Below are positions 2,701 to 40,840 of a stretch of DNA of 64,000 bases, one piece after another (within the stretch, counting starts at the first letter, position 1; the number at the start of each line of letters is the position of its first letter). Made by a program: the position numbers and the translations under genes. The stretch comes from Henckelia pumila (lineage: Eukaryota > Streptophyta > Magnoliopsida > Lamiales > Gesneriaceae): NCBI RefSeq assembly GCF_033568475.1, contig NC_133122.1:182113449-182177448 (forward strand), written 5' to 3'. The notes beneath the pieces were generated by a model. That model was not told the origin of the DNA. It did no database searches and worked only from the letters and a program-made list of their open reading frames with translations.

Positions 2701-3363
2701 TGTAGTGACCCGCACCGTTATCTCCTACTAATCAGAAGCTTAAGCATGCATTTAACTTAATCAAATAAAATATCAAAAATAACAGCGAAAACTTAAAAAA
2801 TAATAAAAAATATTGTTTACAACCATATCGAATAAAACCAGTGTATTAACCCAAATACAACTGAAACAAAAGCTTAGACAATAACCCTGTTGGCCCTCAA
2901 TGGCCTAAGCTCTTCTGGAACCACCCGCATCGTCCAGCCGTAGACCTGCCCCATGGAATAGGGTGTCCAGATACAAAAAAGTACGGGACGTGAGCATGAT
3001 AAGCTCAGTACGAGAGTATGAGTATACGGTGTTATGTGTGCATGTATGCAAGTGAACTGGGTACCAAGACTCTCAGGTCAAAAAACAAGCTCATAGACCG
3101 GGCCCAGGGTATATAGCACGCTGCGTCGTCGCATCGGGAGGTGGCTCATATACCCATGGATAATGGTGACCTGATACTAGTACATGTGTCTAACCATAAA
3201 GGTGACTTGACACAAGACTTACGTATCCAACCATCCACAAACTCGTAGGGTGAGCGCCCTACTATAGGATACCTCTAAGGTAAAAGCTCAATATGCTCAT
3301 GTATGCAACATACAGTCATGACATGCTGTATATAAAGGCATATAAAACATGCAATCACATAAT
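2701..3363 (-). repeat. Solo LTR S, first segment
   Basis: Begins tgtagtgacccgcacc on the plus strand and is continued by 15380-16260, together about 1.54 kb. The outer ends are TG...CA, and a perfect 5-bp duplication CATGA flanks the whole (2696-2700 and 16261-16265). There is no internal retroelement region of its own, so it is a solo LTR later split by element A. The minus orientation is favoured because the reverse complement starts TGTAGTAGCCCGG and ends GGTCACTACA, like many plant chromovirus LTRs. Orientation is the uncertain part; the boundaries are firm. Confidence 0.8.
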
Positions 3364-3937
3364 TGATTAAACTTAAAATTTGTAATTATTTATATGTTAA
3401 AAAGTGTGTTTTAAAATTTAAGTTTAATTAAAATTATGAAGTTGTATTATTTTAGTGTTATGTGTTTATATTTAAATGTTTTACTAAAATGTTGTATTTT
3501 ACGGTTTGCGCAGGTTTGGTAAAAATAAAATTACTCAAGCTAAAGAGGTCATAATGGAGTAATCTCAAAACCTGTAGAATCACAAAAGAGACATCTTCAA
3601 CTTTGTAGAAGACAAGAAATTCCAAAAACTTCATTAAGATGATCAAAATAATCAAACATAAAAATGGAGACAAATTTACTTTTACTATGACCAGCTTGGA
3701 GTAAAAATATCATAAGTATTTCATATTTTATCCAAAAGGGGTGAATGAGTTGTCAAAACATATCTACAGACAAAGGGCTACGTGTTATATGCTTTGTGCA
3801 GAAGCAAAATGGGAAGTCTAAGGCATCAAACATGTCAATTAAAGTTGGGTCAATGTATTGACATTCAAGGAGACAAGCACCCACCAACTTTACTATTCCA
3901 TATTTAATGAGTCTTGGACCCTTGCTCTCATTTGGCC

Positions 3938-3945
3938 TATAAATA
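3938..3945 (+). promoter_or_regulatory. TATA box of the element A 5' LTR
   Basis: tataaata in the context ggcctataaatagatgtg, about 575 bp into the LTR. It is the best core promoter in the LTR and would put the U3/R boundary about 30 bp downstream. The same octamer occurs at 14150-14157 in the 3' LTR. Confidence 0.65.
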
Positions 3946-4441
3946 GATGTGTTGTATAAGCTTTGTAGTGTGCAAGAGTGTAGAGAAGTCCTCATTTGTA
4001 AAATAAATATTGTGTGTGTGAGAATAAAAGTTTGAGTGTGCATATTTCTCAAGTTCAAGTATGAAATTTATTTTATCCTTACTCTTGAGTTTCATGTTCA
4101 TGGCAAGCTAAATTTTTTTATGTCAAGGTGAAAAGGTTTTATTGTTGGTCAAGTAAGATTATTTATATTTTGTATATTCTTCTCTTTTTCTATTTCTATT
4201 TTGTTTTTCTAATTGATCCTTATTTGTAGGTATAATTTTGGAAGATTTGTTGTTATCTATTTACATCAAATGCTTGGTACCTTGAATGTGGTTACCTTGA
4301 TTTGTTGTCAAATATGATACAATAAATACTACAATAATTATATACTATAAATATAAGTATCTATTTATAATAAAGTCATATATATTATTTAGACGATAGC
4401 GTGACACTGTCGGTTGTTCTAAATAATATATTGTGATTTGA

Positions 4442-4574
4442 ACTAACATTTACTTTCTCGCATCTAACTTTTACTTTATCGCAACTAACATTTACTTTTC
4501 CGCAACTAACATTTACTTTCTCGCATATAACATTTATTTTTCCGTAACTAACATTTACTTTATCGCATCTAACA
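4442..4574 (+). repeat. Tandem ~24-bp repeats in the 5' LTR of element A
   Basis: About six imperfect copies of actaacatttactttatcg with alternating tctcgcat and ttccgcaa spacers. The same array lies at about 14655-14787 in the 3' LTR. It lies downstream of the TATA box, so it would be in the transcribed part of the LTR. Confidence 0.8.
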
Positions 4575-5169
4575 TAAAGTCATATATTTTATTTAGACGA
4601 TAGCGTGGCTCTGCCGGTTGTTCTAAATGAAATATTGTGATTTGATCTAACATTTACTTTTATGTTAATTTATATTTATGCATTTATATATATATTATGG
4701 GTACCATGTATTAAATATCGGCTGATATTAATATAGTGGGAACTATATTATATGATATACTTGTTTAAATATTTAATTGTTCTTTTTATGTTTATATTTA
4801 TTCATCTATATATATATTATGGGTACCATATATTAAATATCGGTTAATCTGATATTAATATAGTGGGAACTATATTATATGATATACTTGTTTAAATATT
4901 TCATTGTTCTTTAATGTTTATTCTTATTTTAGTTTCTTTTATTTATTTTTATTAAGCAATCTTAAATAAACCAACAATGAACCTTTGAAACCTTGACAAT
5001 TTTATAATTTGTGTATTTGAAGTTTCATAATAATATTTCCATCTATAATATATCATGCTAAAATTAAACTTACAGCATCCTCTCCGTAGATCGATCTCGT
5101 ACTCACGAGTATATTACTTGCAGACAACCTACACTTGGGTGAATTACAATTTAAGTTGTAGCAAGTTTT

Positions 5170-5187
5170 TGGCGCCGTTTCCGGGGA
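5170..5187 (+). other. Primer binding site of element A (tRNA-Asp type)
   Basis: tggcgccgtttccgggga, 6 bp after the LTR end, matches the complement of the 3' end of plant tRNA-Asp with one mismatch. This is the PBS typical of Athila elements. A donor-like gag|gtataa follows immediately (5185-5193). Confidence 0.85.
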
Positions 5188-5243: not shown

Positions 5244-5331
5244 ATGATTGTTTGGAGTCGTAAACAAAGTGGTAGACTTGTTCGAGTAACTGAAAATATT
5301 TTAAACATGGACGATAATTCTAATAATCAAG

Positions 5332-5423
<92 letters not shown>

Positions 5424-6569
5424 CATCAAGAACATGAACAACCAAGAACACTTAGGCACCATATGAATCAAATAAGAACTAGTACACCATCTTGTTTAGT
5501 TTTTCCTCCTGATGCATCTAATTTCAATTTTAAGCCACAAGTCATTCAACTTTTACCAAATTTTCATGGCTTAGATTCTGAAAATCCATATTTGCATTTA
5601 AGAGAATTTGAGGAGGTTTGCAACACTTATAATGATTAAAATTGTAGCATGGATACTGTTCGATTAAAGCTTTTCCCTTTTTCCTTAAGAGATAAAGCTA
5701 AAACATGGTTGCAAAATTTGAGATCAAGTTCAATAAGATCATGGGAAGAAATGCAACAATTTCTAAAAAAGTTTTTTCCTTCCCATAGAACAAACTCTTT
5801 TAAAAGACAAATTACAACTTTTTCTCAAAAACAAAGGGAAACATTTTAATAATGTTGGGATAGATATAAAGAGTTACTTAATACATGCCCACATCATGGT
5901 TTTGAAATATGGAGGATAGTTTCTCACTTTTATGAAGGTTTAATACCTAAAGATAGGCAAATGATAGAATTCATGTGTAATGGAACTTTTGAAGATAAAA
6001 ACCCAAATGAAGCTATAGAATATTTGGAGTCATTAGCAGAAAATGCTCAAAATTGAGATAATATAGGTTCAATTGAACCACCAAGTAAAACCAATAATTC
6101 AACAAATGGGGGTGGTATTTATCATCTTAAAGATGATGTAGATGTTCAAGCTAAACTTGCATCTTTAGCAAGAAAAATCGAGTCATTAGAAATGAAAAAG
6201 AGTGATCAATTAAAAAGTGTTCAAAAAATTGTTTGTCATATATGTGACACACATGATCACCTTACAAAAAATTGTCCTACTTTGCCTTCATTTAAAGAAT
6301 GTCTCCATGAACAAGCCAATTATGTTAACAATTTTAAAAAACCAACATTAGATCCTTTTTCACAAACATATAATCCTGGTTGGAGAAATCATCCTAATTT
6401 TAGTTGGAGGAACGATAATAATGCACAACCTTCACAATAACCTTTTCACAATAACCAAAGTCATCAAGGTTATGCTCCTTATATCCCACCTCCAAGAAAA
6501 CATTTTGAAGATGAAATTCATGCATACATTCAAAAGCAAGAGTCTATCAATATTCAAAACATTCAATCT
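5244..6569 (+). pseudogene. Gag of element A
   Basis: Nucleocapsid/capsid precursor. A likely start is the ATG at 5307; the frame opens at 5244. A run of about 30 Asn codons is followed by a capsid-like region with FSLRDKAKTWLQNL and RTNSFKRQITTF, then a CCHC zinc knuckle C-x2-C-x4-H-x4-C at about 6232-6275 (CHICDTHDHLTKNC). The capsid part and zinc knuckle are what define it as Gag. Several stops interrupt it (5637-5639, 5847-5852, 6054-6056 and near 6440), so it is a pseudogene in this copy. The order gag then protease then RT is the usual Ty3/Gypsy order. Confidence 0.85.
5333..5423 (+). repeat. (AAT)n microsatellite encoding a poly-Asn run in Gag
   Basis: About 30 uninterrupted AAT repeats in frame, translated as Asn near the Gag N terminus. 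Its length makes slippage polymorphism between copies likely. Confidence 0.95.
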
Positions 6570-7560
6570 ATGAATGATTTGAAAGAAACTCTTGCAAAAT
6601 TTGCATCTGCACTTAATATTCATGAAAAAGGAAAATTTCCATCTCAACCACAACCTAATCCTAAAAATCAAAATCAAGAAAAATTTGATCAAGTAAAATC
6701 TGTTATTACTCTTAGAAGTGGTAAAATAGTTAATGATCCATATAGTGATGAAAACAAAGATCAGTCAAACTCAAAGAGTAAGGATGAAAATCTTGATACT
6801 TTCGAGAAAGATGATACTTTGAGTCCTAAGATTAAGAAAGTTGATGATAAATTATCTGAAATAATATGTGAGTCAAATAAACATGTTCCTTTCCCTCATG
6901 CATTAGTTAATAATAAAAAACAAAAAAATAATTCTGATATTTATGAAGTTTTTAAACAAGTAAAAATAAATATTTCATTATTAGATGCTATTAAACAAGT
7001 GCCTTCTTATGCAAAGTTTTTAAAAGATTTATGTACTGTGAAAAGACAATTGCATGTAAAGAAGAAAGCATTCTTAACGGAGCAAGTAAACTCTATTATT
7101 CAAAATAATTCTACCTTGAAATATAAAGATCCCGGTTGTCCAACAATTTCATGTATTATTGGAAAAAAATAAAATTAAAAAAGCTTTGTTAGATTTGGGA
7201 GCAAGTGTGAATTTAATTCCTTATTCAGTTTATGAAAAGCTTAAGTTGGGAGATTTAAAACCTACATCTGTTACTCTTTTACTAGCCGATAGGTCAATCA
7301 AAATACCTAGAGTTATTGTAGAAGATGTATTAGTTCAAGTTGATAAATTCATATATCCCGTGGATTTTATTGTCTTGGATACACAACCAATAGAAGTACA
7401 TAACGAAATTCCAGTAATATTGGGACGTCCATTTCTAGCAACTTCAAATGCTTTAATTAATTGTCGAAATGGAATAATAAAATTGTCTTTTGGAAATATG
7501 ACTTTAGAACTTAATGTGTTCAATTTATGTAAACAACCAAGTATTAATGAAGATGAAGAT
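6570..7560 (+). pseudogene. Gag-Pro linker and aspartic protease of element A
   Basis: The linker region (6570-7172) contains VITLRSGK and VPSYAKFLKDLCTVKRQ, both characteristic of Athila-type polyproteins. The retropepsin-like domain follows in the next frame from 7159, with LLDLGASVNLIP in place of the DTGA active-site loop and a C-terminal PVILGRPFLATSNA that serves as the flap/ILG signature. The change of frame near 7165 breaks the link between linker and protease. In the family this enzyme cleaves the Gag-Pol polyprotein. Confidence 0.82.
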
Positions 7561-7699
7561 GATAATGCAATAGAAACAATCGTGGAAGAAAATATACACC
7601 AAGAAAACTTAAATCAACAATCTGAAGTTTGTTTAGTGGAAAGTTTTGATTCAAAAAATGTTTTTAAATCAAAGTTATTTAAAGAAATTAATGAACTTG

Positions 7700-9290
7700 A
7701 AGAAGTAAAAGAAAATGATCATCCAAAACTTGAATTAAAACCCTTACCAATAGAACTAAAATATGCTTTCCTTGGTGAAAATCAAACATATCCTATTGTA
7801 ATATCTTCTACCCTCTTACCAAAACAAGAAGAAGATTTAATAACACTACTTAAAAAACACAAAAATGCAATTGGATGGACTTTGCAAGATATAAAAGTTA
7901 TAAATCCTTTAATCTGCACACATAGAATTCACTTGGAAGAAAATGCTAAAATATATCAACAACCACAAAGAAGATTAAATCCACACATGAAAGAAGTTGT
8001 TAAAAATGAAGTTTTAAAACTATTAGATGCCGGAATTATTTATCCAATCTCGGATAGTAAATGGGTAAGTCCAACACAAGTAGTACCAAAAACATCAGGC
8101 ATCACTGTTATAAAAAATGAAAAGGGAGAATTATTACAAGCTAGGATTCCATCTAGTTGGCGTATGTGCATTGATTATAGAAAATTAAATGATGCAACTA
8201 GAAAAGATCACTTTCCGTTACCATTTTTAGATCAAATTTTTAGAGAAAGTGGCAGGTAATCCTTATTATTGTTTTCTTGATGGGTATTCGGGGTATTATC
8301 AAATACCAATATCATTAAAAGATCAAGAAAAAACTACTTTCACTTGTCCGTTCGAAACTTTTGCTTTTAAAAGAATGCCATTTGATTTATGTAATGCCCC
8401 GGCTACTTTTCAAAGATGCATGCTAAGTATTTTTAGTGACATGATTGAAGAATTTGTGGAAGTTTTTATGGATGATATAACTGTTTTTGGAAACTCATTT
8501 GAAAACTGTCTTAAAAATTTGGAAGAAGTTTTAAATAGATGTGAAGAAAAAAATCTTGTTTTAAATTGGGAAAAATGTCACTACATGGTTAAATCCGGAA
8601 TTGTGTTAGGGCATGTCATATCTGAAAAAGGAATTGAAGTTGATAAAGCTAAGGTTGATGTTATTGCTAATTTACCATCACCAAACACGATCAAAGAAAT
8701 TCGATCATTTTTGGGTCATGCGGGATTTTATAGAAGATTTATAAAAAAATTTAGCATAATATCGAAACCAATTTCAAATCTTTTAACAAAAGATGCACAA
8801 TTTGAATGGACTCAAGAATGTGAAACTGCTTTTAAAAAGATAATTAATCTTTTAACTACATCACCTATTTTACAACCTCCTGATTGGTCTTTACCATTTG
8901 AATTAATGTGTGATGCAAGTGATTATGCTGTAGGAGCCGTGTTAGGACAAAGAAAAGAAGGTAAACCTTATGTGATCTATTATGCAAGTAGAACCTTAAA
9001 TAGTGCTCAAATCAATTATTCAACAACTGAAAAAGAATTACTTTCAGTAGTGTTTGCATTAGATAAATTTTGATCCTATTTAATTGGTTCTACTACTATT
9101 GTTTACACTGATCATTCTGCCATAAAATATTTATCAAATAAACAAGATGCTAAGCCGAGATTAATAAGATGGATTTTGTTGTTACAAGAATTTGATCTTG
9201 TAATAAAAGATAAAAAAGGAAAAGAAAATGTAGTAGCCGATCATTTATCAAGAATAATTTCTGAATCATCTCAAAATGAAATACCAATAA
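7700..9290 (+). pseudogene. Reverse transcriptase and RNase H of element A
   Basis: RT copies the element RNA into DNA. Visible motifs: MCIDYRKLNDATRKDHFPLP (about 8165-8225), FLDGYSGYYQIPI, FKRMPFDLCNAPATFQRCM and the catalytic VFMDD (about 8464-8478). A frameshift at about 8245-8250 splits the RT. RNase H follows with [34 protein letters not shown] and TDHSAIKYL, broken by a TGA at 9071-9073. It ends in the conserved [10 protein letters not shown] before integrase. The sequence type (VFMDD rather than FIDD) groups it with element F and separates it from chromoviruses C, E1 and E2. Confidence 0.9.
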
Positions 9291-9399
9291 ATGAAAATTT
9301 TCCGGATGATCAACTATTTTATGCTACTACTATGCCTTGGTTTGCTAATATTATAAATTTTCTTGTGACAAATAAAATGCCTTCTCATTGGAGTTCACA

Positions 9400-10620
9400 A
9401 GATAAAAATAAATTCTTGAAAGAGGTCAAAAAATTTTATTGGGATGATCCTTATTTGTTTAAGTATTGTCCTGATCAAAATTTTCGACGATGCATACCCG
9501 AAAATGAGGTAAGTAGTGTCATTAAATTTTGTCATTCTGAGGCATGTGGAGGTCATTTTTCGTCAAAGAAAACAGTTGCAAAAATCTTTCAATGTGGATT
9601 TTATTGGCCTTTTTATTCAAAGATACACATTCATTTTGCAAATCTTGTGAAAATTGTCAGAAAATGGGTTCAATTTCAAAACGAAACATGATGCCTTTAA
9701 ATTCAATCATGATTATTGAAATATTTGACAGTTGGGGAATAGATTTTATGGGTCCATTTCCATTATCTTTTGGATTCACTTATATTTTAGTGGCTGTCGA
9801 TTATGTTTCAAAATGGATTGAAGCAATTGCATGTAGAACTAATGATCATAAAGTTGTGATAAAATTTTTGAAAGAAAATATTTTTAGTCGATTTGGAATA
9901 CCTAGAGCTATAATAAGTGATGGGGGAAGTCATTTTATAAATAAATCATTTTCTTCGTTGTTAAGAAAATATGGTATTACACATAAAGTTTCTACTCCAT
10001 ATCACCCTCAAACGAATGGTCAGGTTGAACTTGCAAATAAAGAAATAAAACAAATTTTGGAAAAAACAGTCAATCCAAATCGAAAAGATTGGTCTTTAAG
10101 ATTAAGTGATGCATTATGGGCATATAGAACTGCATTTAAAACATCATTGGGGATGTCACCATATAGATTAGTTTTTGGAAAGCATTGTCATCTACCTGTT
10201 GAAATTGAACATAAAGCTTATTGGGCAATTAAAGTGTTTAATACTAATTTAGATGATGCATCTAAATTAATAAAATTGCAATTAAATGAACTAGAAGAAT
10301 TAAGAAATGATGCATATGAAAATGCAAAGATTTATAAAGATAAAACAAAAGCATTTCATGATAAAAATATTATGAGTAAATCTTTTGAAATCGGACAAAA
10401 AGTTTTACTTTATAATTCTCGCTTGCATTTGTTTTCAGGAAAACTTAGATCGCGATGGTCTGGACCACTTATTATTAAATTTGTCTATCCTCATGGTGCT
10501 GTTGATGTTGAAAATCCTAAAAATAATAATGTATTTAAAGTTAATGGGCAAAGACTTAAACCGTTTATAGAAAATGAAGCTCTTAATGAAGAGTTTATGC
10601 CTTTATATGATCCAACTTAA
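9400..10620 (+). pseudogene. Integrase of element A
   Basis: Inserts the cDNA into host DNA. The N-terminal HHCC zinc region (about 9526-9670) has [13 protein letters not shown] in one frame and CKSCENC in another, so a frameshift lies within it. The catalytic core (9700-10200) reads GIDFMGPFP, then ISDGGSHF, then [12 protein letters not shown], giving the D, D-35-E residues. The C-terminal part contains [13 protein letters not shown] and PHGAVDVE. The ORF ends at 10618-10620 and there is no chromodomain, as expected for Athila. Confidence 0.9.
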
Positions 10621-10638
10621 TTGTTACTTATATTTTTA

Positions 10639-10652
10639 TTTTATTTTTGCAG
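10639..10652 (+). promoter_or_regulatory. Splice-acceptor-like site after pol in element A
   Basis: A T-rich run ending in gcag lies 32 bp after the integrase stop (attttatttttgcag|aattg, AG at 10651-10652). With the donor-like gag|gtataa behind the PBS (5185-5193) it could give a spliced RNA carrying the cargo ORFs, as described for the env-like ORF of the related barley Bagy-2 element. Inference from sequence only. Confidence 0.4.
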
Positions 10653-10776: not shown

Positions 10777-10778
<2 letters not shown>

Positions 10779-10846
10779 GGATGAAGCTATCAAAAAACTT
10801 GGTAAATATTTTCCATCTGTTTCTAAAAAAGTTCTGATAATGATTT

Positions 10847-11329
10847 ATGAAGGCAGATGTGAAAGATTTGAGAATGCTTATGCAAAAAGGAATCCCGGAG
10901 GATATTCGTCTTATAATTAAAGCCAAGGTTCGATTATGTGGTGAAGTTCCAAAATTCTTACTTGTTCGAAATATGTCTGGACTAGGTAAAAGTACCTATG
11001 CGAAGAAAAGAAGGGCTAAAAGGTTAGATGTTTGTCATAATTGTGCCAGATGGACTTGTAATAGACAATGCAGATCTTTGGGATTTGTTTCCACAAATAG
11101 AGAAGATAAAATTGATTTCATTAAGAATGGGCTGAGTAAAGAGTCATTAGATGATATCTCATTGACTCTTGAGACGCATTCTAGTGGAGATGTTCAAGGT
11201 CAACTTCTCCGTTTATGAAAACTATTCCAAGCGCAGCGTCATGGTAATGGTCTTGGGAATCTGACTAAAAAAGATCATATTTGCCAATTTATAAGAAAAT
11301 TGGATGGTAAGCCAACCCTCGACTCATAA
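10847..11329 (+). pseudogene. Cargo ORF 1: basic Cys-cluster protein resembling carlavirus-type nucleic-acid-binding protein
   Basis: An open frame of 123 codons to a TGA at 11216-11218, continuing in frame to a TAA at 11327-11329 (160 codons counting the internal stop). Residues 1-45 form a helix-like region; residues 51-59 are YAKKRRAKR; a cysteine cluster follows at residues 63, 66, 71 and 75 (C-x2-C-x4-C-x3-C); then NREDKIDFIKNGLS. This order (short helical part, Y-A-basic-RRA stretch, four-Cys finger, then a K-x2-FI-x2-G segment) is that of the small nucleic-acid-binding / silencing-suppressor proteins encoded near the 3' end of carlaviruses and relatives. That is a resemblance recalled, not a search result. 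The finger here is shorter than I expect for the viral family. No retroelement domain explains it. It could also be an unrelated zinc protein. Confidence 0.5.
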
Positions 11330-11517: not shown

Positions 11518-12155
11518 ATGACAGGATCTTCTTCACAAAAATTGAAAAATATTTGTGTCTTTTGTGGTTCTAATACTGGAAAGAATGAAATATTTGTTGA
11601 TGCAGCAATTAATCTTTGAAAAAAGTTAGCAGAGAAAAAAAATCACTTGGTTTACGGAGGAGGCAATATTGGGTTAATGGGATCTATTTCAACAGCAGCT
11701 CATCTTGGAGGTAGTCAGGTTTTGGGTATTATTCCTACAGCTTTAGCTGAAGAAAATATTACAGGTGTTACGGTTGGGAAAGAGTTGAAAGTTTCATCAA
11801 TGTACGAGAGAATAACTAAAATGATAGAAAATTCTGATGCTTTTATTGCCTTACCTGGTGGTTTTGGTACTTTAGAAGAAATTTTTCATGTTGTTTCTTG
11901 GGCACAACTTAATATCCATAATAAACCTGTTGGCTTGTTGAATATCAATAACTATTATGATGGTTTGTTGACTTTTCTTGATGTAGCCGTGAAACAAAAT
12001 TTTATTTTAGAAAATTCACGAAGGATGTCATCTCTGCTTCGAATGAAGACCAATTAATTGATGATCTCCAATCTTTTGTTCATCAACCTGATTCGGCTAT
12101 AACAAAGATCAATTGGTCTCAACCAACCAGTAAGAAAAGAAAACTGGATCATTGA
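11518..12155 (+). pseudogene. LOG: Cargo ORF 2: intronless LOG-family cytokinin-activating enzyme
   Basis: LOG enzymes release active cytokinin bases from riboside 5'-monophosphates. From the ATG at 11518 the frame reads KNICVFCGSNTGK, YGGGNIGLMGSIS, GGSQVLGIIP, a retained Arg in MYERITKM, then the catalytic PGGFGTLEE and WAQLNIHNKPVGLLN. Length (~212 codons) fits the family. Plant LOG genes have several introns; this copy has none, as expected after capture through RNA. One in-frame TGA (11617-11619) and one frameshift near 12020 break it; after the shift the LOG C-terminal helix continues (DVISASNEDQLIDDLQSF) to a stop at 12153-12155, ending in basic SKKRKLDH. It is AT-rich like the flanking pol and looks clearly diverged from typical plant LOGs, so the capture looks old. 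It lies inside element A, between integrase and the first purine tract. Confidence 0.88.
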
Positions 12156-13562
12156 TTCAACATGTCACGAAATGGTTTGTGTTTGTTCCTCATCTTCAAT
12201 AAATTCCAGGTGATATCTCTTTCATCATGTACTCTTTATTTTTCTTTCAAAAAAATGTCATATTCAGGTTTGGGGGAGAGTTTATTTAAAAAAAAAAAAT
12301 TTAAAATTTAAAAAAAAATATTTCTATAATAATATATATTTTTCCTTTTTCAATGGCAGAGTAAGGAGTCAAAAACTCCTGACACGCATTAGTTTTTATT
12401 TATCATATTATCACAATAGATTAGATTTTAATATTCCGTATATATTTAAATTGCAAACTACTAAGAAAATGAAGTCTTTTTGTATAGATTTTTATTTATT
12501 CTTCTTTTTATCAATTTAATAGAAAATATGTAATTGATGGGATATAAGTTATAAATAATATATAATTGTGTGTTTTCAAATAACATATTTTTTAAAACTT
12601 TTATGAGTATATAATTAAAGTGATATTGATTGAATGAATAATAACATGTATAATTGAGGGAATTAATTTGTAAAAGTGCAATATTTACTCACATAAATTT
12701 TGTGAGTGAGAGGTGAGAATTGAGAAAACAACTTATAAGCTTTTATTGATTATTAAGAAATGGTTGATTACTAGATTAAACCCATTTTAAAAAAAAATTA
12801 TTGTGCATATGAAAATTGGCTGCAAAGATTGTTTGAAGTTTGATTGTAAAGATGTAGAGTATTAATATCTCTACTATAATTATCAATGTAATAGATTTAC
12901 CTCATAAAAAATAAACAAATAAATAAACTTTGAAATACATTTTCAAAGTTTATTGGAGGTATTTGGTTATGTAAAAACAATTTTGCAGCCAAGCAAAAAA
13001 GAGAAAAATAGAAAAAAGAAAAAAAAATAAAAAAAAACAAAATAAAAACAAAATGGGTTTATTCTTTGTAAATTATCCTATCTTATTTTCAATATTAAGT
13101 TATTAGATTGTCTGCTTTACATATTAACCATTTTCAATGAGTGTATAATTTTATTCCAACTCCATGAGTGAAAACTAGTTATATATATATATATAAAAAA
13201 AAAATCATAACCCGAGAGAATATGGAGTTGAAACTTTTACATTAAAATTTCTGAAGATATACATGTTATAAAAAGGATTTCTATTATCATTTTGATTATA
13301 TTATTCTCAAAGTTTTTAGAAAATATTTATATAAAAAATTATTTATATTTAATATTTTGATATTGTGTGAAATATATATGTATACCCCACCCAATTATAT
13401 ATTAATATATTAGTTGATATCAAGATTTATAAATAAACATATGATATTCTTACAAGTATGTTTTAAAATTTCAAAGTTTGCAAATTTGAATATATATATT
13501 AAGGAATAAAAATCTAACATGTGATTTTATGAAATTTTATTACTAAGGGACTAGTAATTAGC
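12156..13562 (+). other. AT-rich noncoding 3' region of element A
   Basis: No ORF of note. It holds an internal purine tract at 12266-12280 (aggtttgggggagag), a small hairpin aggagtcaaaaactcct at about 12364-12380, and long A-rich runs (about 12960-13050). It matches in position the noncoding stretches between the two purine tracts of F and D. Confidence 0.7.
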
Positions 13563-13575
13563 CGGTTTGGGGGTG
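13563..13575 (+). other. Polypurine tract of element A
   Basis: cggtttgggggtg directly before the TG of the 3' LTR at 13576. A near copy (aggtttgggggagag) lies ~1.3 kb upstream at 12266. Confidence 0.75.
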
Positions 13576-15374
13576 TGATGAAACTTAAAATTTGTAATTA
13601 TTTATATGTTAAAAAGTGTGTTTTAAAATTTAAGTTTAATTAAAATTATGAAGTTGTATTATTTTAGTGTTATGTGTTTATATTTAAATGTTTTACTAAA
13701 ATGTTGTATTTTACGGTTTGCGCAGGTTTGGTAAAAATAAAATTAATCAAGCTAAAGTGGTAATAATGGAGTAATCTCAAAACCTTTAGAATCCCAAAAG
13801 AAGCATCTTCAACTTTGTAGAAGACAAGAAATTCCAAAAACTTCATTAAGATGATCAAAATAATCAAACATCAAAATGGAGACAGATTTACTTTTACTAT
13901 GACCAGCTTGGAGTAAAAATATCATAAGTATTTCATATGTTATCCAAAAGTGGTGAATGAGTTATCAAAACACATCTACAGACAAAGTGCTACGTGTTAT
14001 ATGTTTTGTGCAGAAGCAAAATCGGAAGTCTAAGGCATCAAACATGCCAATTAAAGTTGGGTCAATGTATTGACATTCAAGGAGACAAGCACCCACCAAC
14101 TTTACTATTCCATATTTAATGAGTCTTGGACCCTTGCTCTCATTTGGCCTATAAATAGATGTGTTGTATAAGCTTTGTAGTGTGCAAGAGTGTAGAGAAG
14201 TCCTCATTTGTAAAATAAATATTGTGTGTGTGAGAATAAAAGTTTGAGTGTGCATATTTCTCAAGTTCAAGTATGAAATTTATTTTATCCTTACTCTTGA
14301 GTTTCATGTTCATGGCAAGCTAAATCTTTTTATGTCAAGGTGAAAAGATTTCATTGTTAGTCAAGTAAGATTGTTTATATTTTGTATATTCTTCTCTTTT
14401 TCTATTCTATTTTGTTTTTCTAATTGATCCTTATTTGTAGGTATAATTTTGGAAGATTTGTTGTTATCTATTTACATCAAATGCTTGGTACCTTGAATGT
14501 GGTTACCTTGATTTGTTGTCAAATATGATACAATAAATACTACAATAATTATATACTATAAATATAAGTATCTATTTATAATAAAGTCATATATATTATT
14601 TAGACGATAGCGTGGCACTGTCGATTGTTCTAAATAATATATTGTGATTTGAACTAACATTTACTTTCTCGCATCTAACTTTTACTTTATCGCAACTAAC
14701 ATTTACTTTTCCGCAACTAACATTTACTTTCTCGCATATAACATTTATTTTTCCGCAACTAACATTTACTTTATCGCATCTAACATAAAGTCATATATTT
14801 TATTTAGACGATAGTGTGGCTCTGCCGGTTGTTCTAAATGAAATATTGTGATTTGATCTAACATTTACTTTTATGTCAATTTATATTTATGAATTTATAT
14901 ATATATTATGGGTACCATGTATTAAATATCGGCTGATATTAATATAGTGAGAACTATATTATATGATATACTTGTTTAAATATTTAATTGTTCTTTTTAT
15001 GTTTATATTTATTCATCTATATATATATTATGGGTACCATATATTAAATATCGGTTAATCTGATATTAATATAGTGGGAACTATATTATATGATATACTT
15101 GTTTAAATATTTCATTGTTCTTTTATGTTTATTTTTATTTTAGTTTCTTTTATTTATTTTTATTAAGCAATCTTAAATAAACCAACAATGAACCTTTGAA
15201 ACCCTGACAATTTTATAATTTGTGTATTTGAAGTTTCATAATAATATTTTCATCTATAATATATCATGCTAAAATTAAACTTACAGCATCCTCTCCGTGG
15301 ATCGATCTCGTACTCACGAGTATATTACTTGCAGACAACCTACACTTGGGTGAATTACAATTTAAGTTGTAGCA
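13576..15374 (+). repeat. 3' LTR of element A
   Basis: 1799 bp, TGATGAAAC to GTAGCA, followed by the duplication ATAAT (15375-15379). The TATA box is at 14150-14157 and the ~24-bp tandem repeats at about 14655-14787. It pairs with 3364-5163. Confidence 0.93.
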
Positions 15375-15379
15375 ATAAT

Positions 15380-17031: not shown

Positions 17032-18261
17032 TTACTCAACATTTGGCGGAGCATCTAGAGTGATATCATGCTCGTCCCCTCCTACATATGCTTGGACTCC
17101 TTCATAGTAGTATTTAAGCTGGTGGCCATTGACCTTGAATATTTTGGATATGTCCAAGCTTTGAATTTCGACTGCACCATGGGAAAAGACATTAGTAACA
17201 ACAAAGGGATCATTCCAACGTGAACGCAACTTACCTGGAAATAGTCGAAGTCATGAGTGATAGAGCAGAACTTTTTGTCCGACTTCGAATTCTCGTCTAG
17301 AGATCATCTTGTCATGGAAGGCCTTTGTCTTATCCTTGTAAATCTTAGAGCTGACATAAGCATCATTGCGGATCTCTTCTAATTCTTGCAACTGTAACTT
17401 TCGGTGATCGCCGCTCTCATCCATCTGCATGTTAAAGTTTTTGATAGTCCAATAGGCTCTATGCTCCAATTCTACTGGCAAATGGCATGGTTTCCCAAAA
17501 ATCAGCCGATATGGGGACATTCCAATCGGCGTTTTGAACGCGGTTTTGTAGGCCCACAAAGCGCCATCCAGGCGCAAGCTCCAGTCCTTCCTTGTAGGAT
17601 TCACGGTATTTTCTAGGATGGATTTGATCTCTTTATTCGAAATTTCAGCCTGACCATTGGATTGTGGGTGGTATGCGGTGGAGACCATGTGCGTCACATG
17701 GTACTTCTTTAGCAAACTGGCCACAGTGCGATTGCAAAAGTGCGTTCCTCTATCACTGATGATGGCTCGTGGAATCCCAAACCTATAGAAAAGATTATGC
17801 TTGATAAACTCTGCAACAACTTTAGAATCATCAGTACGGGTGGCCTTTTCTTCCACCCATTTCAAGACATAGTCGATAGCAAGTAATATATATATGTATC
17901 CATATGAACTTGGAAAAGGTCCCATGAAGTCGATGCCCCACACATCAAATATTTCACAAACTAAAATAGGTTGTTGAGGCATCTCCTTTTGCTGGGAGAT
18001 ATTACCTGTCTTCTAGCATTGAGTGCACGACTTAAAAAAAACGTAAGCGTCTCGAAACAAGGATGGCCATAAAAATCCGCAATCCAACACCTTTCTTGCT
18101 GTCCTTTTTGCTCCAAAATGGCCACCACACGCATGAGAATGACAAAACGTGAGATTATGAATTACCTCACTCGCAGGTATGCATCGACATAGAACTTGAT
18201 CAGCGCAGTGTTTCCACAAGTATGGATCATCCCACACATAATACTTGGAATTGCTTCTCAC
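17032..18261 (-). pseudogene. Integrase of element F
   Basis: A single frame from 18261 to 17032 interrupted only by a TAG at 18013-18015 and a TGA near 17249. The zinc region reads HSHACGGHFGAKR then CTQC. The core has GIDFMGPFP (about 17935), ISDRGTHF (about 17755) and [13 protein letters not shown], the D,D-35-E set. The C-terminal part has SRWNDPFVV and SHGAVEIQ. It is closest to element A integrase within this window. Confidence 0.88.
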
Positions 18262-18286
18262 CTTGTCCTTTTGTGCCTTGGAGAAT

Positions 18287-20054
18287 TCAGGGAAATCCTT
18301 TAGTAACTAAATAATTGACAATATTTGTGTACCAGGGTAATTCGGCGCTTGCTGAAAACAATTGCTCATTAGGAAATTCTTCACGCAAGCTCAGCTCCTC
18401 ATCGATGTGAACTAGGCGGCTCAAGTGGTCAGCGACTTGATTTTCTGTCCCTCTTTTGTCCTTGATTTCCACGTCAAATTCGCTCAGGAGTAGTATCCAT
18501 CTTATTAGCCTTGGTTTCGCCTCCTTCTTCACCATCAAAAAACGAAGAGTTGCATGATCAGAATAAACAATGACTTTAGCACCAAGTAAATAAGAGCAAA
18601 ATTTTTCTAATGCAAAAACTACAGCCAATAGCTCCTTTTCAGTGGTGGAGTAGTTCCGTTGGGCATCGTTTAGGATACACGAAGCGTAGTAGATAGAATG
18701 CGATGCTTTCCCAACTTTTTGGCCTAAAACTGCGCCCACAGCATAGTCGCTGGCATCACACATGATCTCGAATGGTTGGCTCCACTCCGGTGGTTGGATT
18801 ATTGGTGCAGATGTCAATGAGTCTTTGAGTTTGTCAAAAGATGTTTTGCACGGTTCATCAAACTCAAACGAGACATCTTTTTGCAACAATTTGCACATGG
18901 GGGATGCGATCTTGGCGAAGTCCTGAATGTATCTCCTGTAGAAACCTGCATGGCCAAGAAAAGAACGCACTTCCCGCACACATGTGGGATAAGGAAGAGA
19001 CTGAATAATATCAATTTATCCTTGTCTACCTCTATTACCTTAGATGAAATGACATGACCCAACACAACACCTTGCCCAACCATAAAAAGACATTTTTCAG
19101 AATTTAAGACTAACTTGGTTTCGACACACCTCTTAAGGACAAGAGCAAGGTTAGACAGACAGTTTTCGAATGAATCACCATAGACAGTAAAATCATCCAT
19201 AAAAACTTCTAAGATATGCTCAATGAAATCTGAAAAGATACTGACCATACACCATTGGAAAGTGGCCGGTGCATTGCAGAGTCCAAAAGACATCCGTCGA
19301 TATGCAAAGGTGTCAAACGGGCAAGTGAATGTCGTCTTTTCCTGATCTTCCGGCACAATAGCAATATGAAAATAACCAGAATACCCATCAAGAAAACAAT
19401 AATAAGGATGACATGCTAAACGTTCAATCATTTGATCAATAAATGGTAAAGGGAAGTGATCCTTTCGGGTTCCCGCATTTAACTTCCTATAGTCTATACA
19501 AACCCTCCACCCGTTTTGAATGCGGGTGGGAACCAATTCATCATCCTTGTTCTTTACCACAGTTATCCTGGTTTTCTTGGGCACCACTTGGACTGGACTG
19601 ACCCACTGACTGTCAGAAATCGGGTATATGACTCCAACTTCAAGAAGTTTCATAATTTCAGCCTTCACCACCTCCATCATCGGTGGGTTCAATTTTCTTT
19701 GCGGCTGACGTAAGGGATTCACTCCTTCCTCCATCAAAATTCTGTGCATGCATGTAGAAGGGCTAATTCCCTTGATGTCTGTTATGGTCCATCCGATAGC
19801 AGTCTTGTGCTCTTGTAGTACTTTGACCAATTGTTCCTCTTGGTCGGCTTCCAAACTATTGAGATGATGACTGGTAATGTTTCTCCTTCTCCAAGGAAAA
19901 CATACTTGAGATGTTTTGGAAGTGTCTTTAGTTCGACCATGGGTGCCTGCAAAACAGATGGAAGGCACCAAGTATTAGAGATTGGTAATAATATATAAGA
20001 GATATTACCTGACTGAGGTAGCTCAGGTGAACTGTTCAGAATTCCCTCAATCTC
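18287..20054 (-). pseudogene. RT and RNase H of element F (5' truncated)
   Basis: Minus strand from the truncation at 20054. The linker region contains LQAPMVELKTLPKHLKYVF, then AIGWTITDIKGISPSTCMHR, WRVCIDYRKLNAGTRKDHFP, FLDGYSGYFHIA, LCNAPATFQWCM and the catalytic VFMDD (about 19195). Frameshifts lie near 19900-19940 and 19000. RNase H shows [33 protein letters not shown] and ADHLSRL. A frameshift near 18290 separates it from integrase. Gag and protease are absent because the element ends abruptly at the junction with D. Confidence 0.88.
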
Positions 20055-22114: not shown

Positions 22115-22857
22115 TCGAATGCTCAAGCTTATAGGCCACCGTATCCTCCATGGCCACAGCGTCCTAAAGTTCCAACGCCTGGTGAGTTTCTAGAAAACAT
22201 TGTTAAGGATCTTGCTACTAATACTGTAACTTTTAAACAGGAAACTCGAGAAAGTATCCAACACTTGAACACTCAAATGGGGCAGTTGGAAACCACATTC
22301 AATAGGTTGGAGGCACAAAACTCTAACAGCTTACCATCACAGACAGTGGTGAATCCAAAGGAGAATGTGAGTGCAATCACCTTGAGGAGTGGAAGAGACT
22401 TGAAGGTCCGTGAAGAGGTGGTTCACACACCGGTAAATAATGAAGAAGTGGAGAAAGAGCCAGTACAGAACGAAGAGGCACTGAGAGGTAAGTTTCCTCC
22501 CCTTTCTGAGTATAAACCTGTAGCCCCTTTTCCCTTAGCATTGAAAGGGTCTAGGAAGAATGAAGGAATTAAGGTGTTGTATGAAATTTTTCGTAGATGT
22601 GAGGTAAATATTCCTTTGTTAGATGGTATCACTCAAGTACCTCGCTATGCTAAATTTTTAAAAGAGTTGTGTACTGTGAAGAGAAAACAAAAACTGAAGG
22701 GATGTCAGAGAGTTGAATTGGGAGAACAGGTTTCTGCTGTAATTCAAAGAAAAATACCTACAAAATGCAAGGATCCAGGTATGTTTTTTATTCCTTGTAA
22801 AATAGGAGATGTTCAGCTTGACACGACCATGTTAGATTTAGGAGCATCGATTAATGT
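22115..22857 (+). pseudogene. Gag-Pro linker and N-terminal protease of element D
   Basis: The linker has LETTFNRLEAQN (possible coiled coil), VSAITLRSGRDLKV and VPRYAKFLKELCTVKRKQK, as in element A. It leads into the protease with IPCKIGDVQLDTTMLDLGASINV, where the active-site loop is DLGA. The frame is interrupted at 22857 by insertion of element C between the conserved N-V and the next residues. It resumes at 32002. Confidence 0.85.
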
Positions 22858-24954
22858 TGTAAGGCCCGGGATTATTTAATTTAATCCGAGATTATTTAAT
22901 TTTAATCCACATATATTTAATTTGGGAATATTTAGAGTTTTGATTTAAATTCTAATATTCTTCAATTATTTAGGATTGAAATTGAATTTAAAAAGGACCT
23001 AGGACCGAATTGAAAATACTGAAGAATTTAGGGGCTAAAATGCAATTTGGCTTGAAGTTATCAGATTATTATTGCTTATTCAGCATGTATGCGTGTATGT
23101 GTGATATTAATTTCAGAAAAATTGAACAGAGCAAGACGAGATCTTCATTTTCTTTGAATTTCCAATTTAAAAAACCCCGTAACTTTTGATCCGCTTGTTC
23201 GATTTCAATTCCGAAAATAGTTCTGGAATCCTTGCGACCTTGCAACAAGGACTTCTATTTGGTGTAAGTTTTTAATTATTTTGGAATGTTTTGAAGATTG
23301 AAATATTGCAGAGATCAGATTTTATGCTCTATGCATGTTCGTGAGCTTTTGTATCTTGTATATTCGAAATCGAATTGACGAACGGATATTGTTTGGATTT
23401 CTTATGAATTACCAACATGGGTTCAAATAGTTATGCTTTGATTATGCTGATATTTGATGATGTTTTGCTGTGATATGTTGGTTTGAAGTATATATGAAGT
23501 TAGAATGGTTTCGATATTATGTCGGTTACCGATTTTCAATCGCTACGCCGTCGATTCATGTTTTGAGACCGTTTTGATAGTCTATGATTGAGATTAGATG
23601 TTCTTTGAGATGTTGTTGATGTTGTAGAAATTTTATGCTTCCATTTCAGACTAGTTTTGAAGGCTAACGACTCAAGAACTTTGAATTCAAACCGAAGAAA
23701 AATAAGTCAAGGTTTGAAGTCATTTTGTTGAAGATTTAATGATAATTTTTAACAGATTTTGGAATGATAGAATTGAAGGGAGATTGATATGAATGTTTTG
23801 ATGTTATGTTTTAGATTTGAAGCGTTCAAAATCGAGAAAACCAGAAGGTATAAGACAACATCGCGAGTCAAGGATTTGAAACTCGAGAATGAAGCTTCTT
23901 GAGTTGTCCCGCAAAAATCACATACTTGTTTATTGTTTTGATTTGATTTTGATGTTGTCGATCCATCTTAGGTAGTGGATCTTTGAGTCGATATTATTAC
24001 GATGATGATATGATATGATATTGAATTGATTCTATGCCGAGGTCGGAGGCGACCTTATTTTCTAGTCAAGAATGACTACGATAGATGGATATCCATATCA
24101 AGATCGGTTACGAATCTTGATGGCAACGACGAGATATGAATCAATTCTTGATCAATATATGTGTTGTTTACTCTACTGTTGAGTCGATTATGATTATATT
24201 TGATATGATTTATTTAACGCTTTATATATGTCGATTATACTGGGAATGATTTCTCATCGGAGTTTATCCGGTTGTTGCTTTATTTTGTATGTGTGCATGG
24301 AAACAGAGGGGGCATGATCTAGTCAAAGACGTCATTGACATCTTGGGAGAGAGTTAAGCACGTGAGGACTCGGGTTTTAGCTAAAGTTAGAAGTTTTAGA
24401 AGCATCAAACATGTTAGAATATTGTGGTTTGAAGTACACTTTTGAGAATCGTTATAGTTGTGTCGTTTATCGCTTTGTTAATGATATGTTTGATGTAATA
24501 AATGCCTGAATATATATTTGAAACTTCATTTATGTATATATTCCTGTATTAGATTTTATAAACCATGATTGGAGTTGGTTTTTGAATGATTTGGATTGAA
24601 TGTTCGAAGTTGACAGCAAAAATAAATCTGCAGAATTTCTAAAGTAGGGGAGCCGCTCGATCGGGTGAATTGCACCGATCGAGCGAGGCCCTTAAATTTT
24701 CAAAACAGAGAATTGGAATTTTGAGCTCGCTGGATCGGGTGAGTTCCACCGATAAATCGAGGCCAAATATGTTTCAGACCCGAGAGCTGATGATTTAAGC
24801 TCGCTCGATCGGGTGAGTTTACCCGATCGAGTGAGGTGCTGAAATTTTAAAAAAAAAATTAGCTCTTGGTTTTAATATTAATTATTGTTTGATTAATTGT
24901 TACCTAATCATTAATTTCCCAAGATGAGATTAGCAACCCGAGGTCCCCACCACA
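22858..24954 (+). repeat. 5' LTR of element C
   Basis: Starts tgtaaggcccggg and ends ggtccccaccaca (the 3' LTR ends ggtccccaca, 3 bp shorter). It is ~60 bp longer than the 3' LTR, mainly through one segment near 23600-23655 missing from the 3' copy. It carries a hairpin array at 24650-24840. Confidence 0.88.
24650..24840. repeat. GC-rich hairpin array in the 5' LTR of element C
   Basis: Three units at about 24652-24690, 24724-24762 and 24799-24838 (spacing ~73-75 bp). The arms are ctcgatcgggtg and caccgatcgag with a ~5-base loop and a one-base bulge; the outer context is gctcg...gagcgagg. Copies are at 31690-31885 in the 3' LTR. Confidence 0.9.
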
Positions 24955-24956
24955 GG

Positions 24957-24968
24957 TGGTATCAGAGC
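24957..24968 (+). other. Primer binding site of element C (tRNA-iMet)
   Basis: tggtatcagagc, the complement of the initiator tRNA-Met 3' end, just after the LTR. It is the usual PBS of chromoviruses. Confidence 0.9.
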
Positions 24969-25266
24969 TTAAGTTTCTCGGACTGAGAATAGATGAGCGG
25001 GGTAGATCGAGACCTTTTGTGTGATTTCTTTATTCTCGAAGCATGATTACGATTTGAGTCTATTTATTGCTTTGAGAATTATATACTTGCTTATATATCT
25101 GAGATGATTGGAAGTATGTGATATTGGGAATGAATCAGCATAGATTCTGAATCAGAACTCGATTTCTTGAAGATGCATGAAAATGCTAATCAGAGGAAGG
25201 CTGAAACAGAACTGTGTTCTGAGATATATTTTGAAAATTGTGCACTAATCTTTTTGATTATCAAAT

Positions 25267-29849: not shown

Positions 29850-29947
29850 TGTGAGTTTTTATTCAATTTTCCGTTATTCTTTATCTTATGTGCATACAGA
29901 CTGCATATCTAGACTGCTTATGAATTCGAGGACGAACTCATGCCTTA

Positions 29948-29959
29948 GTGGGGGAGAAA
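29948..29959 (+). other. Polypurine tract of element C
   Basis: gtgggggagaaa directly before the 3' LTR, downstream of the conserved gaattcgaggacgaact, which is also present before the E2 PPT. Confidence 0.85.
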
Positions 29960-37017: not shown

Positions 37018-37195
37018 AAACGTATTCCCACTATTGACTGCATTCTATGTGAATTTGAAGAAGAGCATGTCAATGACATTTGTACATAAATTAGGCAATT
37101 AAAAATTGATACATTATTACACAATTTCTTGAACGCAATCTTATCGAGTTGAATAAACATTTTAATATTTTATAGTTTATAAAAATGCATTAATT

Positions 37196-40825: not shown

Positions 40826-40840
40826 ATTCTCCCCCTCTAA
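40826..40840 (-). other. Polypurine tract of element E1
   Basis: On the minus strand: ttagagggggagaat just before the LTR, preceded by atttcgaggacgaaat as in the other chromoviruses here. Confidence 0.8.

What the first reader, a model, noticed from the sequence alone, without database searches (positions are those of the whole stretch)
11518..12155. A LOG cytokinin-activating gene carried inside an LTR retrotransposon
Seen: an intronless LOG-like frame with both signature motifs (GGGNIGLMG and PGGFGTLEE) between integrase and 3' LTR of element A, inside matching LTRs and a perfect target duplication, so it moved with the element. Known: LOG enzymes make active cytokinins and plant LOG genes normally have introns. 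Inferred: an RNA-mediated capture. The AT-rich composition matches the flanking pol and the protein looks clearly diverged from typical plant LOGs while keeping catalytic residues, which suggests long residence and past selection rather than a recent accident. A mobile element able to raise active cytokinin could influence cell division in the tissue where it transposes. I know of no described Athila element with this cargo.
Basis: partly seen in the sequence, partly recalled or inferred. Interest (0 to 1): 0.88.

Follow-up and report, generated by a model that had tools for sequence, protein, structure and literature searches.

The report
Retrotransposon-borne LOG enzyme with altered pocket
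A family of jumping genes in a plant carries, in well over a hundred copies, its own long-separated version of the cytokinin-activating enzyme LOG beside a relative of a plant-virus protein; selection has kept both, but the part of LOG that should grip the hormone precursor has been rebuilt, so its job may not be making cytokinin.

Summary
A LOG frame lies between integrase and 3' LTR of a Ty3/gypsy, Athila-like element (TSD ATAAT). In this copy LOG is broken (stop at 11617, frame break near 12030). It is no one-off: the host genome has at least 150 LOG matches; in 88 of 88 examined a second gene, NABP, directly precedes LOG, and 65 of 75 colinear LOG copies are open. LOG is under purifying selection (pN/pS 0.37) and lies apart from the host's own multi-exon LOG genes.

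LOG in Gypsy elements is already in print (Citrus, Populus; PMC9289625). Not found in print: (1) NABP resembles carlavirus cysteine-rich proteins, known silencing suppressors; (2) catalytic Arg, Glu and PGGxGTxxE are kept, but two adenine/prenyl-pocket residues (Lys103, Glu128, AtLOG3 numbering) are gone in 116 and 115 of 119 listed relatives, invariant in 120 of 120 listed host LOGs; (3) some copies have NABP swapped. So 'cytokinin-activating' is doubtful. I read it as a selected two-gene 3' module of unknown substrate: a new variant of a known kind.

The parts
3359..3363 (.). 5' copy of target site duplication ATAAT
3364..5163 (+). 5' LTR (TG...CA), 98.0% identical to the 3' LTR
5170..5187 (+). 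primer-binding-site-like TGGCGCCGTTTCCGGGGA next to the LTR (tRNA-Asp type by recall, not tested)
5244..7172 (+). gag region, frames 5244-5639 and 6570-7172
   Evidence: no Pfam family over its cut-off; gag by position only
7159..8259 (+). protease and start of reverse transcriptase (pol frame 1)
   Evidence: Asp_protease_2 2.5e-5
8249..9073 (+). reverse transcriptase and RNase H
   Evidence: RVT_1 1.7e-22, RT_RNaseH 1.3e-19
9176..10620 (+). integrase (zinc-binding part in frame 9176-9691, core in frame 9544-10620)
   Evidence: Integrase_H2C2 1.1e-5, rve 4e-19
10621..10652 (+). T-rich tract ending TTTTGCAG, 3'-splice-site-like, between integrase and NABP
   Evidence: read directly in the window; TTTTGCAG in 55 of 66 other rows long enough to tell
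10777..11326 (+). NABP gene: cysteine-rich, carlavirus-NABP-like protein, 183 aa in open copies; here a frame break near 10868 and a stop at 11216-11218
11518..12155 (+). LOG gene, 212 aa in open copies; here a stop at 11617-11619 and a frame break near 12030
12269..12280 (+). internal G/purine-rich tract behind LOG
   Evidence: sequence
13564..13575 (+). polypurine-tract-like GGTTTGGGGGTG before the 3' LTR
13576..15374 (+). 3' LTR
15375..15379 (.). 3' copy of target site duplication ATAAT

Best explanation
Element A is a decayed copy, 0.7-1.4 My old by its LTRs, of a large Athila-like Ty3/gypsy family whose 3' region, where Athila elements can have an env-like frame, holds a two-gene module: NABP (basic motif plus cysteines, related to carlavirus nucleic-acid-binding proteins) and LOG. 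Shown: NABP directly precedes LOG in all 88 copies looked at; both genes are under purifying selection among copies; the LOG is intronless, one branch with listed relatives from rosids and asterids, separate from listed host LOGs and from the host genome's own multi-exon LOG genes; it keeps the catalytic Arg/Glu and phosphate loop, while Lys103 and Glu128 of the adenine/prenyl pocket are gone, with one change each on the thinned tree. Inferred: LOG was caught once from a spliced plant mRNA; both proteins are made from a spliced downstream RNA; LOG still cleaves a purine nucleoside 5'-monophosphate but with changed base/N6 specificity; NABP binds RNA and weakens silencing; together they change the cell in the element's favour. 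My odds: module, age and selection 0.85; LOG still an enzyme 0.65; best substrate not a standard cytokinin ribotide 0.5; NABP a silencing suppressor 0.45.
For: At least 150 LOG matches in the host genome, all over the Pfam cut-off (150 of 375 candidates scored). 88 of 88 loci examined (of those 150) and the window have NABP on the same strand directly before LOG; the integrase tail precedes NABP in 8 of 8 longer loci, and integrase matches were found in 20 of 20 further upstream stretches; the window's LTR lies behind LOG in 19 of 20. Of 89 rows LOG is colinear in 75 and open in 65, NABP colinear in 67 and open in 53. pN/pS: LOG 0.368 on 30 disjoint pairs far apart by NABP (binomial p 1.3e-13), NABP 0.506 on pairs far apart by LOG (p 3.7e-7), LOG 0.25-0.27 between subfamilies. 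Tree: 52 element rows plus window one side of a branch, 99/92; 30 host rows 99/95. Eight own-genome host LOG loci match in exon-sized pieces; seven put in a tree fall with the host rows. Pocket: Lys103 in 3 of 119 listed element rows and 120 of 120 listed host rows; Glu128 in 4 of 119 and 120 of 120; Arg102 in 114 and Glu125 in 116 of 119; one change each for Lys103 and Glu128 on the thinned tree. PMC4979012 (passages) puts the equivalent Lys100 in the adenine and prenyl pocket of CgLOG and Glu125 in the prenyl pocket. Fold: model of P0001, pLDDT 88.1, best PDB match AtLOG3 2a33 at 5e-23. NABP: Pfam Viral_NABP and Carla_C4 at E 0.001 or better in 17 of 18 relatives each.
Against: No expression data. 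Copies were found and picked by LOG score, which lowers LOG pN and hides copies without LOG. Nearest pairs are near neutral (LOG 0.86-0.92, NABP 1.10-1.16; integrase 0.72-1.77 on 4-6 pairs); pairs near by the other gene give LOG 0.547, NABP 0.671. The integrase comparison rests on 9-12 copies. The two protein lists are the 120 best matches to two queries, one with the new and one with the old pocket, out of nearly 8000 scored each; rows in between were not seen, so both the clean split of the tree and the pocket counts lean my way. P0054 has Met103 with Glu128, and P0054 and P0118 are not in the thinned tree. The CgLOG text says that alanine at its AMP-binding residues (Lys100 among those named) nearly abolished activity on AMP, so element LOG might be a non-catalytic binder. 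NABP's second cysteine pair is spaced unlike the finger quoted for a carlavirus in PMC3689765, and its model was poor (pLDDT 58). NABP-LOG linkage in other species rests on shared contig lengths alone (5 seen, 1.8 expected, p 0.03).
Confidence: 0.6

Rival explanations
1. Ordinary cytokinin activation: the element LOG makes active cytokinin from its ribotides, pushing cells (meristem, germ line) to divide and so raising the number of copies passed on; this is the first reader's reading.
For: LOG fold and catalytic Arg/Glu/PGGxGTxxE kept; a carlavirus relative of the neighbour NABP, CVB p12, induces hyperplasia (as told in PMC12172455, passages), which would fit a proliferation module.
Against: Lys103 and Glu128, invariant in 120 of 120 listed host rows, are gone in 116 and 115 of 119 listed element rows, His100 in 71 of 119. 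The pocket assignment is from a structure without a cytokinin bound (PMC4979012), so this is not proof.
Confidence: 0.28
2. Pseudo-enzyme: element LOG keeps fold and phosphate loop to bind a nucleotide or a partner (for example through its basic, often LxLxL-ending tail) but no longer hydrolyses.
For: Alanine at the AMP-binding residues of CgLOG, the Lys103 equivalent among those named, nearly abolished activity (PMC4979012, passages); 84 of 100 element-list proteins of 205 aa or more end in LxLxL with a basic residue just before, 0 of 115 host-list ones.
Against: Arg102 and Glu125 would be expected to drift, yet stay in 114 and 116 of 119 rows; the window's own family ends KKRKLDH without LxLxL.
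Confidence: 0.22
3. Passive cargo: an old capture riding along, open only because copies are young.
For: Nearest-copy pN/pS about 0.9; extra frames of plant Gypsy elements often lack known domains (PMC9289625, passage).
Against: pN/pS 0.25-0.42 for far, random and between-subfamily pairs; full-length LOG proteins of one clade from many plants with invariant catalytic columns.
Confidence: 0.06
4. Assembly or annotation artefact: a host LOG gene or retrocopy next to an element.
For: None found.
Against: Inside LTRs with TSD; at least 150 matches; same neighbour in 88 of 88; LTR behind LOG in 19 of 20; the host LOG loci found match only in exon-sized pieces.
Confidence: 0.01

Closest known systems
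YgdH/LOG domain in Ty3/gypsy elements of Citrus sinensis, C. clementina and Populus trichocarpa (PMC9289625, section 12; Steinbauerova et al. 2011 as cited there)
   Same: LOG-family domain carried by plant Gypsy retrotransposons; Populus proteins stand in the list of nearest relatives of the window's LOG, so this may be the same lineage.
   Different: Section 12 gives two sentences on it: no lineage, neighbour gene, selection test or active-site analysis. Here: NABP-LOG module, selection, pocket change, comparison with host genes.
Carlavirus and related cysteine-rich proteins (CRP, NABP; Pfam PF05515, PF01623)
   Same: The window's NABP matches both Pfam families over their cut-offs; basic stretch followed by C-x2-C.
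   Different: Carried by an LTR retrotransposon; mostly 181-183 aa where full length; second cysteine pair C-x4-C-x3-C against C-X2-C-X9-C-X4-C told for PVH (PMC3689765, passage).
AlkB-type m6A demethylase in Phalaenopsis Gypsy elements (PMC9289625, passages and section 12)
   Same: A host-like enzyme acquired and kept by a Gypsy lineage; AlkB also occurs in Betaflexiviridae (passage), the family of the carlaviruses.
   Different: Another enzyme; elements with Ogre/Tat features; found there only in Phalaenopsis.
Type-I LOG phosphoribohydrolases (AtLOG3 2a33, AtLOG8 1ydh, CgLOG 5its)
   Same: Fold, PGGxGTxxE, catalytic Arg and Glu.
   Different: Lys103 and Glu128 replaced by Met/Ile/Leu and Gln/His, often His100 too; LxLxL tail in most listed relatives.
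Athila env-like frame and gene exchange between Athila families (PMC2410132, passages)
   Same: Genes kept by purifying selection and exchanged between distant families; the NABP swap here looks alike.
   Different: The 3' genes here are NABP and LOG; no env search beyond Pfam was made.

Membership tests
LOG (type I phosphoribohydrolase) | PF03641 domain over cut-off | tested here: met
   124.9 bits against 27
LOG (type I phosphoribohydrolase) | PGGxGTxxE and catalytic Arg/Glu | tested here: met
   present in the window; Arg102 114/119, Glu125 116/119 listed relatives; 75/75 colinear own copies
LOG (type I phosphoribohydrolase) | prenyl/adenine pocket Met-His-Lys-Glu-Trp as in AtLOG3, OsLOG, CgLOG | tested here: not met
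   window Met-Tyr-Ile-His-Trp; Lys103 3/119, Glu128 4/119; definition from PMC4979012 passages
LOG (type I phosphoribohydrolase) | activity on cytokinin ribotides | not testable with these tools
   needs an assay
Athila (Ty3/gypsy, OTA) | protease-RT-RNase H-integrase order between LTRs, TG..CA ends, TSD | tested here: met
   this holds for Ty3/gypsy as a whole
Athila (Ty3/gypsy, OTA) | no additional RNase H (aRH), unlike Tat | tested here: inconclusive
   no such Pfam hit in the pieces tried, but this copy is broken and not all of pol was scanned
Athila (Ty3/gypsy, OTA) | Athila ORF-1 domain PF03078 | tested here: not met
   absent in the pieces tried; a minority trait, 16% of Athila elements (PMC6317226, passage), so not decisive
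Athila (Ty3/gypsy, OTA) | RT/INT phylogeny with named Athila elements | not tested
   no reference set at hand
Carlavirus-type NABP/CRP | Pfam PF05515/PF01623 over cut-off | tested here: met
   window 31.7 (cut-off 23) and 29.2 (20.9) bits; 17 of 18 relatives each at E 0.001 or better, cut-off shown only for the first
Carlavirus-type NABP/CRP | basic motif followed by zinc-finger-like cysteines | tested here: inconclusive
   basic stretch and four invariant cysteines in 18 relatives; second pair spaced differently from PVH
Carlavirus-type NABP/CRP | suppression of RNA silencing | not testable with these tools
   needs an assay

The most novel reading that the evidence does not exclude
An old Athila-like lineage spread through eudicots carries a two-gene counter-defence module: a NABP that blocks RNA silencing and a LOG-derived hydrolase that, after losing two charged pocket residues once, acts on another nucleotide (for example N6-methyl-AMP from RNA turnover, a non-standard (d)NMP, or a nucleotide immune signal) rather than making cytokinin. 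NABP variants are swapped between families as a cassette.
Probability: 0.27. Interest if true: 0.87.

Novelty: new variant of a known kind. Interest (0 to 1): 0.72.

Why it matters
Many extra genes of plant retrotransposons have no known domain (PMC9289625, passage). Here one is a known enzyme fold with a known assay, kept by selection, with what looks like a single pocket-changing step, beside a homologue of viral silencing suppressors. That allows a concrete test of whether retrotransposons change hormone or nucleotide metabolism and silencing to their benefit. It also warns that some proteins named LOG in plant genomes (in one search: Populus 'LOGL10', Primulina 'LOG3-like') are probably element proteins that may not make cytokinin.

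Tried and rejected
Rejected: one-off capture (at least 150 matches); recent host retrocopy; chance frame. Led nowhere: two IMG/VR scans, with P0001 and with the NABP alignment, found no relative; the NABP model was too poor to search; the AtLOG3 query against the own genome returned 150 matches (its cap) at 49-52% identity, which I take for element copies. The first integrase comparison began with a query part in a wrong frame and left 3-4 copies; replaced. The first LOG pN/pS included a copy out of register by a codon; removed. Contig lengths as proof of NABP-LOG linkage elsewhere are weak. Not done because the genome search did not complete: own-genome searches with LOG P0001 and NABP P0121, and with them any look for integrase- or NABP-bearing copies without LOG. 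The pattern that found host LOGs demands the letters RKAEM, so their Lys103 is by choice; Glu128 (8 of 8) is not.

Full report
What is there. The window is AT-rich DNA (GC 0.355) from a genome held as 884.7 Mb in 133 contigs, a plant by its LOG genes and retroelements. Element A has LTRs at 3364-5163 and 13576-15374, TG...CA ends, a 5-bp duplication ATAAT on both sides, a primer-binding-like site behind the 5' LTR and a G-rich tract before the 3' LTR. The LTRs differ at 35 of 1799 sites (K2P 0.0197), which gives 1.4 My at 7e-9 (rate recalled) and 0.66 My at 1.5e-8 per site and year (rate used in PMC2410132, passage). Pol has the Ty3/gypsy order protease, RT, RNase H, integrase and is split over several frames.

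The LOG frame starts at 11518. The stretch 11620-12030 matches Lysine_decarbox (LOG) with 124.9 bits. There is a stop at 11617 and a frame break near 12030, so this copy makes no full LOG. Between integrase and LOG lies a second gene, 10777-11326, broken as well, which matches Pfam Viral_NABP (2e-7) and Carla_C4 (8.8e-7) over their cut-offs; 17 of 18 relatives that I chose from the 120 listed match each family at E 0.001 or better. I call it NABP.

The family. The LOG domain has at least 150 matches in the host genome (150 of 375 candidates scored, all over the cut-off). I examined 88 of these 150: 8 given and 80 fetched, from the upper and the lower part of the list. In 88 of 88, and in the window, NABP lies on the same strand directly before LOG; in the 8 longer loci the integrase tail precedes NABP, and 20 of 20 further upstream stretches hold integrase. 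For 20 copies I fetched the stretch behind LOG: 19 hold the window's LTR, 18 of them from its first base, about 1.4 kb behind LOG; one has only the LTR's end part and one has none. Of 89 rows (88 loci and the window), 75 have LOG colinear and 65 of these are open; 67 have NABP colinear and 53 are open; 45 have both open. Because copies were found through LOG, copies without LOG could not show up.

Selection. Pairwise counts (Nei-Gojobori type, own script) avoid any consensus. For LOG, 30 disjoint pairs chosen as far apart by NABP give pN/pS 0.368 (138 nonsynonymous, 105 synonymous; binomial p 1.3e-13); for NABP, pairs far apart by LOG give 0.506 (p 3.7e-7); pairs near by the other gene give LOG 0.547 and NABP 0.671; random disjoint LOG pairs give 0.33-0.42; five subfamily copies against main copies 0.25-0.27. 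Nearest pairs are close to neutral (LOG 0.86-0.92, NABP 1.10-1.16), as expected for decay after insertion. Integrase in 11 copies with open INT piece and open LOG: farthest pairs 0.61 against LOG 0.41 in the same copies; nearest pairs 1.49 and 1.26; these numbers are small. Picking copies by LOG score favours low pN in LOG but not in NABP.

Relatives. The protein search with the LOG piece scored 8000 candidates, 7960 of them at E 1e-10 or better, and listed the best 120: LOG proteins mostly of about 216 aa, from Primulina, Populus, Reevesia (many loci), Diplodiscus, Paulownia, Melia and Xanthoceras where a name is given, and from many unnamed contigs. Two Primulina gene models join pol pieces like the window's to LOG: P0011 an integrase end (84% over 51 aa) and P0015 an RT piece (79% over 66 aa); they are 2 of the 240 proteins that I tested. 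A second list of 120 plant LOGs near AtLOG3 and AtLOG8 served as host LOGs. For trees I used the 119 element-list rows of 150 aa or more and the 120 host rows, thinned to 52 and 31, plus two bacterial LOG pieces and the window. In the careful tree, without one long-branched host row (P0241), the 52 element rows and the window form one side of a branch (99/92) and 30 host rows another (99/95); in the quick tree with P0241 the same 53-row group has 93. Both lists are the best matches to one query each, so rows in between, and host LOG types other than LOG1/3/4 and LOG8, are thinly sampled. In the own genome a pattern for MH[QE]RKAEM found 8 host LOG loci; all match host LOGs in several exon-sized pieces, up to 97-100% per piece to AtLOG3, two give identical protein pieces, and seven put in a tree fall with the host rows; the element group keeps support 89 there.

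The pocket. In CgLOG (PMC4979012, passages read) Arg99 and Glu122 are the proposed catalytic residues, Met96, Lys100 and Glu121 hold adenine, and Met96, His97, Lys100, Glu125 and Trp129 form the proposed prenyl pocket, said to be identical in AtLOG3, OsLOG and CpLOG; alanine at the AMP-binding and catalytic residues, except Ser19, nearly abolished activity on AMP (the figure with the single mutants was not seen, and Glu125 is not said to have been tested). In AtLOG3 numbering (plus 3) the 119 element rows keep Arg102 in 114, Glu124 in 116, Glu125 in 116, Trp132 in 118 and Met99 in 105; but Lys103 is kept in 3 (Met 55, Ile 30, Leu 30, Val 1), Glu128 in 4 (Gln 59, His 52), His100 in 48; in the 120 host rows Lys103, Glu128, His100, Arg102 and Glu125 are invariant. 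Three element rows (P0096, P0102, P0118; two from Xanthoceras) keep the old pocket, and P0054 has Met103 with Glu128. On the thinned tree, which lacks P0118 and P0054, the losses of Lys103 and Glu128 need one change each, and the 51 rows without both are one group (100/99). Whether the three old-pocket rows are elements or host genes is unknown. In 75 colinear own copies residue 100 is Tyr in 75, 103 Ile in 75, 128 His in 73, with Arg102 in 75 and Glu125 in 75. The predicted fold of P0001 is a normal LOG (pLDDT 88.1; best PDB matches AtLOG3 and AtLOG8). I conclude that hydrolysis of a nucleoside monophosphate is likely kept and that specificity is likely changed; a dead enzyme is possible.

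The tail. Of element-list proteins with 205 aa or more, 84 of 100 end in LxLxL with a basic residue just before, and 91 of 100 have a basic cluster in the last 22 residues; of host-list proteins 0 of 115 for either. On the tree the LxLxL end needs six changes. The window's own family has only the basic patch (KKRKLDH). LxLxL resembles the EAR repression motif and the patch a nuclear signal (both recalled, untested).

The neighbour. Carlavirus and related cysteine-rich proteins are silencing suppressors, and CVB p12 acts as a transcription factor that causes hyperplasia (PMC12172455, passages and section 5; PMC3689765, passages). Five of 88 copies (L020, L034, L045, L048, L086) have LOG 90-99% like the main family but NABP and spacer only about 44-75% alike; in L034, L045 and L086 the integrase side is 87-97% alike, so the NABP cassette was exchanged; in L020 that side was not covered and in L048 it differs. 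Athila families are known to exchange genes (PMC2410132, passages).

Expression. A T-rich tract ending TTTTGCAG lies between the integrase stop and NABP in the window, and TTTTGCAG in 55 of 66 rows long enough to tell (11 lack the exact letters; 23, the window's cut piece among them, were too short). I infer, without RNA data, a spliced downstream message.

In print. LOG (YgdH domain) in Gypsy elements of two Citrus species and, with a laxer filter, Populus trichocarpa is stated in PMC9289625 (section 12 read), citing Steinbauerova et al. 2011 (not held). Its main text has no 'carla', 'NABP', 'nucleic acid binding' or 'suppressor'; its supplements were not open to me. A review of extra ORFs (PMC7264820) has no 'LOG', 'YgdH' or 'lysine decarboxylase' (word search). 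Searches that found no report of such a NABP in LTR retrotransposons: 0 papers; 2 papers, unrelated by title and start of abstract; 2 papers, judged by title and start of abstract. Other searches, seen as listings.

Verdict. The finding is real, old, multicopy and selected; the gene class in Gypsy elements is known; the paired NABP, the pocket change and the cassette exchange are what I did not find in print. New variant of a known kind.

Noticed in passing
L020, L034, L045, L048, L086: NABP plus spacer only about 44-75% like the main family while LOG is 90-99% alike: a cassette exchange between distant families.
   Followed up: partly
window 22857-31995 and 34188-53262: Many more large repeats, direct and inverted, 74-98% alike over 0.2-5 kb, probably other retroelements; the LOG piece gives only weak hits there (best E 0.005).
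   Followed up: no
window 17251-19971 (minus strand): A second Ty3/gypsy pol (RT_RNaseH, rve) on the minus strand downstream of element A.
   Followed up: no
window 4401-4617 and 14612-14828: Tandem array of 21-bp units inside both LTRs, and a 65-bp repeat with 127-bp spacing.
   Followed up: no
window about 5320-5425: Long asparagine run in the first gag-region frame.
   Followed up: no
G000:C72 3249743, 3271205, 3292657: Three LOG matches about 21.5 kb apart on one small contig, and many matches elsewhere with the same score: signs of recent amplification or tandem duplication.
   Followed up: no
L130 and L133: Two host LOG loci on C1 and C3 give identical protein pieces, perhaps a recent duplication or haplotig.
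   Followed up: no
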